The notes beneath the pieces are model-generated. The model was not told where the DNA came from and ran no database searches. It saw nothing but the letters and a program-made list of their open reading frames with translations. A DNA stretch of 64,000 bases from Arthrobacter zhaoxinii (GTDB taxonomy: Bacteria > Actinomycetota > Actinomycetes > Actinomycetales > Micrococcaceae). The position numbers and the translations under genes are program-made. This document shows positions 53,634 through 58,434 of the stretch, in pieces (the stretch's first letter is position 1; each line of letters starts with the position of its first letter). The DNA is taken from assembly GCF_025244925.1 (NCBI RefSeq), contig NZ_CP104275.1, positions 2,418,001-2,482,000 on the forward strand, in the 5' to 3' direction.

Positions 53634-54365
53634 CTACGAGCCGCCGCGCATCCGGTTTACCACCTCTGTCACGGGGGCATCCATGACAATCTGGCCGTGC
53701 TCCAGCAGGACCCCACGCTCACAGATGCGTGAAACCAGGTCCAGATCATGGCTGACGACAACGAGCGTCTTACCTTCTCCCGCCAGTTCCTTGATCTTGT
53801 CGATGCATTTTTTCTGGAACGGCTCGTCACCTACGGCCAGGATTTCGTCCACCAGGAAGACCTCCGGGTCCGTGTGGACCGCAACAGAGAACGCAAGCCT
53901 GAGATACATGCCCGAAGAATAGAACTTCACTTCGGTGTCAATGAACTGCCCGATCTCGGAAAACTCGACGATGGAGTCGAACTTCGCGTTGATCTCTTCC
54001 TCGGTCATGCCCAGGATGGCGCCGTTCAGGTACACGTTGTCGCGCCCGCTCAGGTCGTGGTGGAACCCGGCACCAACCTCGATCAGCCCTGCAACCCGTC
54101 CCCTGGTGCCGACGGTGCCGGAATCGGGACGCATCACTCCGGAAATATGCTTGAGCAGGGTGGACTTGCCGGAGCCGTTCAGCCCCAGCAGCGCCACGGT
54201 CTCCCCCTGCTCAATGTTCAGGGAGACCCCCTTGAGCGCGTGGAACTTCTCGGACAGGTCCCCCTTGCGTCCTTTGACCAGCCAGACAAACGCTTCCTTC
54301 ATGGAACGCGTATGCCGCAGGACGAACTGCTTGTTGATGTTGCGTACTTCAATGGCGTTGGCCAC
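53634..54365 (-). CDS. Polysaccharide ABC exporter ATPase (Wzt/RfbE/TagH type)
   Basis: 243 residues. Walker A LNGSGKSTLLK, the export-type signature YSSGMYLRLAFSVA and Walker B VFLVDEILAVGDEPFQKKC. The VDEILAVGD form marks O-antigen and teichoic-acid exporters. There is no C-terminal carbohydrate-binding domain, so export probably does not need terminal capping recognition. The GTG at 54365 has AGGAG 9 bases upstream. It lies 3 bases after its permease gene. Confidence 0.92.
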   Translation of the reverse strand: MANAIEVRNINKQFVLRHTRSMKEAFVWLVKGRKGDLSEKFHALKGVSLNIEQGETVALLGLNGSGKSTLLKHISGVMRPDSGTVGTRGRVAGLIEVGAGFHHDLSGRDNVYLNGAILGMTEEEINAKFDSIVEFSEIGQFIDTEVKFYSSGMYLRLAFSVAVHTDPEVFLVDEILAVGDEPFQKKCIDKIKELAGEGKTLVVVSHDLDLVSRICERGVLLEHGQIVMDAPVTEVVNRMRGGS

Positions 54366-54368
54366 GGT

Positions 54369-55243: not shown

Positions 55244-57250
55244 TTATTTACTCTCTTCCGAATGCTCGGCGAAGGTTTTCTTCCAGGCTTCGAAGGAAGT
55301 AATCTCCGGAAGTGCCTCGCGGTACTGGTCGCTGAGCTTCTGCCAGTTCTTCAGGATCTCAGCGTTGAGCTGCACTGCTTCGGCCAGGAGGATCCGCAGC
55401 TGCTTCGGATCACGCTTGTACCAGGAGGCCCCGGTACCTTCGGCATTGGAAACCACGGCACTGTCGTACTGGGACATCCGCCACCATTTATTGTCCTGGT
55501 GCGCAATATAGGCCTGCGGGTGTTCGAGGCTGGTCGCCGGAACCTTCTTGGTCAGCTGCTTGACCACCGTCTTGGCTGCCCACGGAATCAGCGATGCATA
55601 TGACGGGGCGGCGAAGCCCTGCCCGCGCCGCGGCGGCTTGTGCATCACCGGCGCAGGGAAGGCCTCCGGCTCGGGCAGCACCTGTGAGTCCGTGAACTTC
55701 TTGGTCAGTGCCTTGATTTCCGGCAGCTTGGTGGGAAGCAGGTCATGCAGGTGCTCCGGGCCGCGGAGCAGGTCGCGCAGGGCCATGACGCGGCCCTGGG
55801 CCGTGAAGTACTGCATGGAGATCAGGTGCTTGAGGTCCATGTAGCCGGTTTCCCGCACCACGCGCCCGCCGTGTTCATACGGACTGTGGATCAGGGCGGC
55901 AATCATGCGGTTGCGGGTGTGGAAGTACGCCTGCCAGCCGACAAGGTCGTCCTTGTCGATCCATGAGACGTGCCAGACGGCTGAGCCGGGCATGGAAACG
56001 GTCGGGTAGCCGGCACTCTTGGCGCGGAGTCCGTACTCGGCGTCGTCCCACTTGATGAAGACGGGCAGCGACAGGCCGATGTCCCGGATGACCTTCGTCG
56101 GGATCAGGCACATCCACCAACCGTTGTAATCCACGTCCACCCGGCGGTGCATCCAGGACGTGTGGCGCAGATTCGAGCGAACGAAGTCGTGGCCGAGGGT
56201 CATCTCGGCATGCGGCTGGTCCGGCTGGAAACGGTAGGGGTTCACTGTCTCGCCGAAGGTGTGCAGCACCGTGCGGTTGTACAGGTCAAACATGTGTCCG
56301 CCCACAATGGTGGGCGTCTTGCAGCGGTCAGCGAACATCAACAGACGGGAGATGCTCTCCGGTTCCATCACGACGTCGTCGTCAAGGAGCAGGACGTAGT
56401 CGCTGCCGCTCTCGACGGCCTCGTACATGCCGCGGGCGAAACCGCCTGATCCTCCGAGGTTGGCCTGGTTGATGATGCGCAGCTTGCCGCCGAGCATGGC
56501 TTCGACTTCGGGGAAACCTTCCGCCTCGGCCACTTTCTCGGTGCCCTGGTCAACGATCAGGACTTCCTTGACGTAGGCCAGCGCTTCCGGGTGGTCCCCC
56601 AGGATGCGCAGGTTGTTGATGCAGAAGGAGGTTTTGTTCAGGGTGGTGATTTCAAGGGTCACACTACCCGGGGTGACGGGCTCCCCCGGCGCCTGCCATT
56701 CGGCCTTTTCGAGAATCAGCGGCTCGGAACCGGCGACGAGGTCAAACCAGTACCAGCCGCCGTCGCCGAAAGGCTTGAGGCTGAGTTCGAAGGTGGAAGT
56801 CGCAGGCGAATTCACCCGCTGGGTCTCGACATGCTGCAGGGCGCCGCGGGCATTGGACTTGTAGACGCTGACGGCGCCTGTCCCCGAGGTGCGGACACTG
56901 AGCCGGATGGTGTCCAGATTGGTCCACCGGCGCCAGTAGCTGGCCGGGAAGGCATTGAAGTACGTGCCGAAGGAAACCCGCTCACCGGCGCGGACGGAAG
57001 TGGACTGCCGGGACAGGAAGTCCTCTGCGTGTGCTTCCTTGCTGGGAGCTGAGTACGCCGGGGCCGCGGCGGCAGTCTTTGCATCACCGTTCATGGTGGA
57101 CAGCTGCACTCCTGTAGCACTGCCCGTGTCCATGTACAGCGGCACCGTGTCCAGCTGGTCCAGGGAAGGAAGAACCACCCGCTGGATCGTGGACCACTGG
57201 CGTTCTGAATCGTCCGCCTGGATTGACCGCTCTACGGTTGCGTTGCTCAC
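55244..57250 (-). CDS. Galactofuranosyltransferase, GlfT2-like
   Basis: A 668-residue protein with the GlfT2 layout: an N-terminal beta-sandwich domain (about 1-215), a GT-A domain with [29 protein letters not shown], the metal site [14 protein letters not shown] and [19 protein letters not shown], and a long helical C-terminal domain. GlfT2 of mycobacteria polymerises galactofuranose onto a lipid-linked primer. The GTG start overlaps the glf stop (GTGA), coupling it to UDP-galactofuranose supply. Confidence 0.9.
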
Positions 57251-58434
57251 GCGTCGACTCCTCCGCTTTCCAGCTTGGCGCCACCGGTGAAGTGGGGCTT
57301 GATTTTGTTGTCGAACATGGACAGCGCCGACCCGATGGCCATATGCATATCCAGGTACTTGTAGGTGCCGAGGCGGCCGCCGAAGAGCACGGACTTCTCA
57401 CCCCTGGCGAGGTCGCGGTAGGCGAGCAGCTTAGCGCGGTCCTCCGCGGTATTCACGGGGTAGTACGGCTCGTCGCCCTTCTCGGCGAAGCGGGAGTACT
57501 CGCGCATGATCACCGTGGCGTCCTTGGTGTACTCACGCTCGGGGTGGAAGTGGCGGAACTCGTGGATCCGGGTGTAGGGAACGTCCTCGTCCGGGTAGTT
57601 CATGACCGATGTGCCCTGGAAATCTTCCACCGGGAGCACCTCTTCTTCGAGGTCGATCGTGCGCCAGGACAGGTCACCTTCGGCGTAGTCGAAGTAGCGG
57701 TCCACGGCGCCGGTGTAGATGACCGGAACCTGGCCCAGGGTGTTGCTGCGGGAGAACTCGTGGCCCTCATCGAAGAAGTCGGTCTTCAAATGCACCTGGA
57801 TGTTCGGGTGATCCGCCATCCGTTCGATCCAGGCCGTGTAACCGTCGACGGGCAGACCCTCGTACTTGTCGTTGAAGTACCGGTTGTCGTAGTTGTACCG
57901 GACGGGCAGGCGGCTGATGATCTCAGCCGGCAGGTCCTTGGGATCCGTCTGCCACTGCTTGCCGGTGTAGTACTTGATGAACGCCTCGTACAGCGGGCGC
58001 CCAATGAGCTGGATCCCCTTGTCATTGAGGTTCGCCGGATCGGTACCCGCGAGTTCGCCGGCCTGTTCCTGGATCAGGGCCTTTGCCTCGGCCGGTCCCA
58101 TGGACGCGCGGAAGAACTGGTTGATCGTGCCCAGGTTGATGGGCATGGAGTACACCTCGCCCTTATGGCTGGTGTAGACCTTGTGCACGTAATTGGTGAA
58201 TTCGGTGAACCGGTTGACGTATTCCCAGACCCGCTCGTTGGACGTGTGGAACAGGTGGGCACCGTAACGGTGCACCTCGATTCCGGTCTGGGCTTCGTTC
58301 TCACTGTAGGCGTTGCCGCCAATGTGATGGCGGCGGTCCAGGACGGCGACCTTCAGGCCCAGTTCCTTGGCAGCACGCTCGGCTACGGTCAGGCCGAAAA
58401 AGCCCGACCCAACGACGACGAGGTCAACGTTCAC
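57247..58434 (-). CDS. glf: UDP-galactopyranose mutase
   Basis: A 395-residue flavoenzyme that turns UDP-galactopyranose into UDP-galactofuranose. FAD-binding start [20 protein letters not shown], then [14 protein letters not shown], plus family residues in [35 protein letters not shown] and the C-terminal [17 protein letters not shown]. The GTG at 58434 has AGGAG 6 bases upstream. Nothing else in the window uses UDP-galactofuranose except the GlfT-like enzymes beside it. Confidence 0.96.

What the first reader, a model, noticed from the sequence alone, without database searches (positions are those of the whole stretch)
53634..58434. Mycobacterial-style galactan unit in a probable non-mycolate actinobacterium
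glf, a full-length GlfT2-like polymerase, and Wzm/Wzt-type exporter genes lie in one overlapping operon. In Mycobacterium the relatives Rv3809c, Rv3808c, Rv3783 and Rv3781 make and export arabinogalactan. No arabinan or mycolate gene is seen here. The operon implies a galactofuranan wall polymer, probably with rhamnose from the neighbouring rml genes, that would be chemically distinct from arabinogalactan.
Basis: partly seen in the sequence, partly recalled or inferred. Interest (0 to 1): 0.7.

Follow-up and report, generated by a model that had tools for sequence, protein, structure and literature searches.

The report
Arabinan-free galactan operon with exchanged polymerase
This Arthrobacter carries the galactan-building genes known from the tuberculosis bacterium's wall but none of the arabinan-building genes tested for, a common arrangement among its relatives, and the chain-building enzyme in the middle appears to have been swapped between species while its neighbours mostly stayed put.

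Summary
In detail: glf, a full-length GlfT2 with 11 of 11 compared active-site residues, wzm and wzt lie at 53634-58434(-), with the 4-base glf/glfT2 overlap reported for M. tuberculosis. The Arthrobacter genome (one 3.47-Mb contig) has no match to Emb, AftA or DPPR synthase, so a galactofuranan without arabinan is the best reading. It is not rare: 28 of 28 genus members and 78 of 148 relatives have GlfT2. Exporter and GlfT1-like genes stay far below curated mycobacterial cut-offs, and the rml link is inconstant. New here: across the genus Glf is 94-99% identical to the window's, yet GlfT2 falls into discrete classes, 49-93% identical. Nucleotide identity drops at the glfT2 borders and partly recovers beyond. 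Genus unity is rejected for GlfT2 (AU p 9e-43) but recovered for Glf and Wzt. At equal Glf divergence (6-12%) mycolate pairs show no such excess (0 of 14). DUF6541 beside wzt has a predicted GT-C fold; PpgS-like, DUF2304 and SucT-like genes flank the unit. I read it as a wall-galactan locus with a stable core, an exchangeable polymerase and variable decoration genes. No chemistry was available.

The parts
57247..58434 (-). glf, UDP-galactopyranose mutase
   Evidence: TIGR00031 336.5 bits, over its cut-off; PDB relatives
55244..57250 (-). glfT2, galactofuranan polymerase (GlfT2 family), class A allele; overlaps glf by 4 bases
   Evidence: PF17994+PF13641+PF19320; 4fix 452 bits; classes
54369..55241 (-). 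wzm, ABC-2 polysaccharide exporter permease
   Evidence: PF01061 67 bits; galactan-permease equivalog 66.7 of 380 bits
53634..54365 (-). wzt, exporter ATPase (243 aa, no room for a C-terminal carbohydrate-binding domain)
   Evidence: PF00005 71 bits; galactan-ATPase equivalog 172.3 of 400 bits
51597..53561 (-). DUF6541 protein, predicted GT-C glycosyltransferase
58574..60616 (-). AT3-SGNH acyltransferase related to SucT
   Evidence: PF01757+PF19040; SucT equivalog 381.7 of 1275 bits over nearly the full length
49229..50134 (-). GT2 glycosyltransferase nearest GlfT1 among NCBIfam models
   Evidence: NF050113 98.7 of 330 bits
48224..49162 (-). rhamnosyltransferase-like GT2
   Evidence: TIGR01556 116.1 of 200.55 bits
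50277..51587 (+). membrane protein; flippase-like by my own reading only
   Evidence: 0 families in Pfam and NCBIfam; role is inference
45253..45909 (+). PpgS-like polyprenyl-phosphate sugar synthase (matched part; the start codon should lie slightly upstream)
   Evidence: NF058614 288.2 of 370 bits
45915..46295 (+). DUF2304 protein, possible partner of the PpgS-like enzyme
   Evidence: PF10066 83.5 bits
41862..42764 (-). rmlA
   Evidence: TIGR01207 482.5 bits
42785..43783 (+). rmlB
   Evidence: TIGR01181 463.1 bits
43746..45239 (+). rmlC-rmlD fusion
   Evidence: PF00908 and PF04321 in one 497-aa frame

Best explanation
The locus makes and exports a wall galactofuranan that is not carried on to arabinogalactan. 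Glf turns UDP-galactopyranose into UDP-galactofuranose, GlfT2 polymerises it on a lipid-linked primer (perhaps begun by the neighbouring rhamnosyl- and GlfT1-like GT2 enzymes), Wzm/Wzt export the chain, and one of three LCP proteins ties it to peptidoglycan. Outside the membrane the place of arabinan is taken by decoration: a GT-C enzyme (DUF6541), possibly fed by the PpgS-like/DUF2304 pair, and an acyltransferase. Across the genus glf, wzm and wzt stay while glfT2 has been replaced in place by alleles of old, distinct classes, some nearer to those of other genera, so the locus behaves as a wall-type locus with an exchangeable polymerase. Shown: gene content, no match to three arabinan genes, conserved active-site residues, allele classes and tree conflict. 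Inferred: every biochemical step and the reason for the exchange.
For: Families; solved GlfT2 and UGM relatives; 11 of 11 compared active-site residues in 31 of 31 genus rows; no match to arabinan genes; three LCP genes; glf, wzm and wzt each in the held flanks of 78 of 80 named GlfT2 loci. Exchange: classes; nucleotide identity against G014 93-96% over most of glf, 51-77% in glfT2, 78-87% in wzm/wzt; 209 of 351 genus pairs with Glf divergence at most 6% and GlfT2 at least 25%; at Glf divergence 6-12%, 0 of 14 mycolate pairs reach 25% in GlfT2 against 82% of 414 (6-9%) and 95% of 478 (9-12%) non-mycolate pairs; class unity rejected on the prfB-region tree and two of three prfB groupings rejected by GlfT2; genus unity rejected for GlfT2 at p 9e-43 but recovered for Glf and Wzt. 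GT-C fold of DUF6541. Galactose as an Arthrobacter wall sugar (PMC4786123); PMC7278926 (passages) mentions an Arthrobacter polysaccharide-peptidoglycan complex and a Bifidobacterium wall galactan in its account of galactofuranose in bacteria.
Against: No sugar or linkage analysis of this organism. GlfT1-, PpgS-, SucT- and exporter-like genes all score below the curated cut-offs. Fourfold-site identity is low for Wzt and Wzm too, so silent sites do not single out glfT2. Part of the divergence may be fast protein evolution: the first 71 residues vary most. Genus unity of Wzm is also weakly rejected (p 0.03), so exchange may reach into wzm. The prfB grouping G012+G002 was not rejected by GlfT2 (p 0.06). 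Class and prfB groupings were named after the trees were seen, which the test does not allow for; the genus grouping was named beforehand. The prfB region lies about 23 kb from the locus and is one marker, not a genome tree. The Glf and Wzt genus clades have support of only 90 and 80. At Glf divergence 12-15%, 10 of 24 mycolate pairs also reach 25%, and at 15-20% 32 of 35 do, so the contrast with mycolates is clear only for close pairs.
Confidence: 0.7

Rival explanations
1. The operon makes an ordinary galactofuranan and the GlfT2 classes are one vertically inherited gene that evolves fast in sequence without replacement.
For: Active-site residues are kept in 31 of 31 rows; the N-terminal 71 residues diverge most; Wzt fourfold sites are as divergent as those of GlfT2.
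Against: Classes are discrete rather than graded with species distance; genus unity is rejected for GlfT2 and the G002 allele sits with another genus at SH-aLRT 95; the break follows the gene borders.
Confidence: 0.2
2. The unit makes a lipid-linked or loosely held galactofuranose exopolysaccharide or capsule rather than a peptidoglycan-bound wall polymer.
For: The exporter matches only broad families well; a SucT-like acyltransferase and several GT2 genes stand beside it; galactofuranose occurs in a Streptococcus exopolysaccharide (PMC7278926, passages).
Against: GlfT2 belongs to the family of the wall-galactan polymerase, LCP genes are present, and Arthrobacter walls contain galactose.
Confidence: 0.2
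3. The locus makes an arabinogalactan through divergent arabinan enzymes that the searches missed, with DUF6541 as the arabinosyltransferase.
For: DUF6541 has the GT-C fold shared by AftA and EmbB; other members of the order do have GlfT2 with DPPR synthase and, in two genomes, Emb.
Against: No match to DPPR synthase, AftA or Emb in the genome; the DPPR synthase model scores 422-446 bits in the four other genomes of the order searched; no arabinose in seven Arthrobacter walls.
Confidence: 0.05

Closest known systems
Mycobacterial galactan module Rv3809c-Rv3808c (glf-glfT2) with the exporter Rv3781/Rv3783 (exporter names from the finding, recalled)
   Same: Glf then GlfT2 with the same 4-base overlap (reported for M. 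tuberculosis in PMC7168186, passages; here); same three GlfT2 domains and compared residues; ABC exporter of the same broad kind
   Different: Exporter directly follows glfT2; DPPR synthase, near GlfT2 in nine of nine canonical mycolate loci searched, has no match; no AftA or Emb; polymerase divided into exchanged classes
Loci outside the mycolate family with GlfT2 and DPPR synthase (G095, G119, G134, Kineococcus rubinsiae)
   Same: GlfT2 with Glf, Wzm and Wzt in the two loci where this was read (L081, L084); GlfT2 51-52% identical to the window's
   Different: Arabinan-precursor gene near GlfT2, and an Emb-like gene in G095 and G119
PpgS/Rv3632/Rv3779 galactosamine decoration of arabinogalactan (PMC9671496, passages)
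   Same: PpgS-like synthase next to a small partner gene, plus a GT-C-fold enzyme nearby
   Different: The DUF6541 model finds nothing in C. glutamicum, which has an Rv3779 ortholog by that paper; PpgS model 288.2 of 370 bits
SucT acyltransferase of mycobacteria
   Same: AT3-SGNH architecture over nearly the full model length
   Different: 381.7 of 1275 bits; substrate unknown

Membership tests
GlfT2 galactofuranosyltransferase | Glft2_N, GT-A and GlfT2 domain 3 in one chain | tested here: met
   127, 70 and 165 bits, all over the cut-offs
GlfT2 galactofuranosyltransferase | Asp256-Asp257-Asp258 and Asp371-Asp372 motifs (PMC7168186), with Trp347, Trp348, Trp370, His396, Trp399, His413 (choice and roles recalled) | tested here: met
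   Same residues in the 4fix alignment and in 31 of 31 genus rows
GlfT2 galactofuranosyltransferase | Makes alternating beta-1,5/1,6 galactofuranan | not testable with these tools
   needs an enzyme assay
UDP-galactopyranose mutase | TIGR00031 over cut-off | tested here: met
   336.5 against 303.75 bits
Mycobacterial galactan ABC exporter (NF050108, NF050109) | equivalog cut-offs 400 and 380 bits | tested here: not met
   172.3 and 66.7 bits
GlfT1 (NF050113) | equivalog cut-off 330 bits | tested here: not met
   98.7 bits, gene 49229-50134
PpgS (NF058614) | equivalog cut-off 370 bits | tested here: not met
   288.2 bits
SucT (NF058601) | equivalog cut-off 1275 bits | tested here: not met
   381.7 bits
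Arabinogalactan pathway | DPPR synthase, AftA and Emb in the genome | tested here: not met
   no match in the one-contig genome; C. glutamicum over cut-off for Emb and AftA, one unnamed control over cut-off for DPPR synthase
Mycolate envelope | Pks13, FadD32, mycolyltransferases | not tested
GT-C glycosyltransferase fold (DUF6541) | GT-C membrane fold | tested here: met

The most novel reading that the evidence does not exclude
In non-mycolate actinobacteria the galactan polymerase GlfT2 is a wall-type determinant: discrete alleles move between species and genera into a fixed glf-wzm-wzt operon, each giving a galactan of different linkage, branching or length, probably under selection by phages or other wall-recognising agents. 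Mycolate bacteria, whose arabinan and mycolates are built on this galactan, have largely frozen the same enzyme.
Probability: 0.4. Interest if true: 0.75.

Novelty: new variant of a known kind. Interest (0 to 1): 0.52.

Why it matters
It separates galactan from arabinan as evolutionary modules: the galactan core occurs in about half of the relatives searched, an arabinan-precursor gene joins it in some lineages, and here DUF6541, PpgS-like and acyltransferase genes stand beside it instead. If GlfT2 alleles specify different galactans, nature supplies a panel of polymerases that share one set of active-site residues, which makes the open question of how GlfT2 sets linkage order and chain length testable by comparison.

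Tried and rejected
DUF6541 as Rv3779: not supported, since PF20176 finds nothing in C. glutamicum, which has an Rv3779 ortholog (PMC9671496, passages). The ALO-family hit as DprE1: rejected. Silent-site divergence as proof of replacement: not usable, as Wzt and Wzm are also far diverged there. Class switching inside the species: the one other genome of the species carries the same allele (99.4%). Mobile carriage of close GlfT2: 3 phage records match, none over 80% of the query; 23 plasmid records match, 7 from Rhodococcus, Nocardia and Tsukamurella and 16 from other genera (alphaproteobacteria by my own knowledge), with one record in the 60-80% identity band that was not listed and the rest below 60%. 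Promoter scan of 51500-60900: no promoter-like site; 8 terminator-like sites against 6.2 expected. Literature: ten searches ran. Those pairing GlfT2 or galactofuranosyl terms with Arthrobacter, Micrococcaceae or horizontal transfer listed no paper on these operons or alleles; the one paper listed was the review PMC7278926. Subscription papers are not held. G013 was left out of the class trees and Glf/GlfT2 pair counts because its glfT2 is split over two frames; its prfB is split too, so sequence error is likely.

Full report
What is there. On the minus strand at 53634-58434 lie glf, glfT2, wzm and wzt in that order. Glf passes the curated mutase model (336.5 against 303.75 bits) and matches solved mutases. 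GlfT2 has the N-terminal, GT-A and third domains of the family and aligns with M. tuberculosis GlfT2 over residues 72-659 at 452 bits. The residues corresponding to Asp256-258, Trp347-348, Trp370, Asp371-372, His396, Trp399 and His413 are identical. The two Asp motifs are from PMC7168186 (passages); the choice of the other residues is recalled. glf and glfT2 overlap by GTGA, the same 4-base overlap that PMC7168186 reports for rv3809c and rv3808c. The ABC exporter genes match their broad families but score 66.7 of 380 and 172.3 of 400 bits on the curated mycobacterial galactan-exporter models.

Which organism. The genome is one contig of 3,468,210 bases, completeness 100 in the tool's table.

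No arabinan pathway found. Emb, DPPR synthase and AftA have no match in the genome. C. glutamicum is over cut-off for Emb and AftA; for DPPR synthase eight controls including C. glutamicum respond and one, not named, passes. One ALO-family protein is closer to FAD lactone oxidases than to DprE1 (202 against 58 bits). Mycolate genes were not searched. One table of wall sugars lists galactose in seven of seven Arthrobacter strains (names as used in 2016), rhamnose in three and arabinose in none (PMC4786123, passages). The review PMC7278926 (passages) mentions an Arthrobacter polysaccharide-peptidoglycan complex and a Bifidobacterium catenulatum wall galactan in its section on galactofuranose in bacteria, so galactofuranose-type wall polymers outside mycolates have precedent.

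Not rare. GlfT2 domain 3 is found in 78 of 148 relatives, including the 28 genus members in that call, and in 26 of 396 genomes drawn over the phylum. In the phylum sample 24 pass the cut-off; the 14 of family f22 also carry Emb over cut-off and the other 10 have no Emb match. Among relatives Emb appears in 2 of 148. That scan's query was made of non-mycolate proteins, so it is not a census.

A nearby contrast. Four genomes of the same order outside family f22 were searched for DPPR synthase: two because they carry Emb, two because they share a genus with one of these. All 4 of 4 have it over cut-off, within about 9 kb of GlfT2 in three and on another contig in the fourth. Kineococcus rubinsiae has it near GlfT2, 1 of 80 named loci; so do 9 of 9 canonical mycolate loci searched.

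The polymerase classes. In 28 genus members Glf is 94-99% identical to the window's, but GlfT2 identity runs from 93% to 49%. At a 78% threshold the operon copies form groups of 10, 12, 4, 1 and 1; the single row G005 joins the group of 12 in the tree. Against G014 nucleotide identity is 93-96% over most of glf, 83% in its last full bin, 51-77% across glfT2 and 78-87% in wzm and wzt. Of 351 pairs of 27 genomes (G013 left out), 209 have Glf divergence of at most 6% with GlfT2 divergence of at least 25%.

Mycolate comparison. In 14 mycolate genomes (91 pairs) GlfT2 follows Glf with r 0.75. At Glf divergence 6-12%, 0 of 14 pairs reach 25% in GlfT2, against 82% of 414 (6-9%) and 95% of 478 (9-12%) non-mycolate pairs. 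At 12-15% the mycolate share is 10 of 24 against 97% of 362, and at 15-20% 32 of 35 against 99% of 1780. No mycolate pair lies below 6%, so the closest range has no control. The non-mycolate set holds pairs between genera, and some genomes entered twice (once as genus member, once as named locus).

Tree tests. On the 4.1-kb prfB region the classes need six changes where four is the least. Classes A, B+E and C as single clades are rejected there (p 4e-87, 5e-7, 2e-4), and GlfT2 rejects two of three prfB groupings tried (p 3e-5 and 1e-53; the third, G012+G002, p 0.06). These groups were named after seeing the trees, which the test does not allow for. In quick trees of 11 genus rows (of 28 genomes) with one row from each of 14 other genera of the family, the genus is one clade for Glf (support 90) and Wzt (80), is weakly rejected for Wzm (p 0.03) and firmly for GlfT2 (p 9e-43); the G002 allele is sister to that of another genus (95) and class C groups with two others (99). 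Three genomes carry a second GlfT2 away from the operon; the two of these copies placed in the wider tree lie next to class C (support 94). A second genome of the window's own species has the same allele.

Judgement. The unit itself is a member of a known kind in a setting that is common. The exchanged polymerase is the part I did not find described in the literature searched. Its effect on the galactan is unknown.

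Noticed in passing
L081 (G095:C7:107091-127090) 4014-8225 and 260-2116; L129 and L130 (G119): Genomes of the order outside the mycolate family carry an Emb-like arabinosyltransferase (PF04602 and PF14896 in L081) and a DPPR synthase, a candidate arabinogalactan outside the mycolate bacteria. In the DPPR synthase frame of L084 Pfam sees only a GtrA-like domain at its end.
   Followed up: partly
L062 9980-12010 (G002), L110 8516-10588 (G011), L124 (G026): A second GlfT2 with no glf or exporter relative found beside it; in L062 and L110 it lies near a UvrA-like ABC protein, and these two copies lie next to class C in the tree.
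   Followed up: partly
L095, L098, L099: Three mycolate-family genomes carry a divergent second GlfT2 (32-33% identical to the window's) near a Wzt-like gene, in L095 and L099 also near rml genes, forming a clade of its own.
   Followed up: partly
window 43746-45239: rmlC and rmlD are fused in one 497-aa frame.
   Followed up: no
window 39329-41752: Glycosyl hydrolase family 25 protein with seven LGFP repeats next to the rml genes, a probable wall lytic enzyme.
   Followed up: no
Wzm of G007, G010, G004, G019, G013: A second Wzm class (72-73% identical to the window's) with Wzt at 85-88% suggests that exporter genes are exchanged too.
   Followed up: partly
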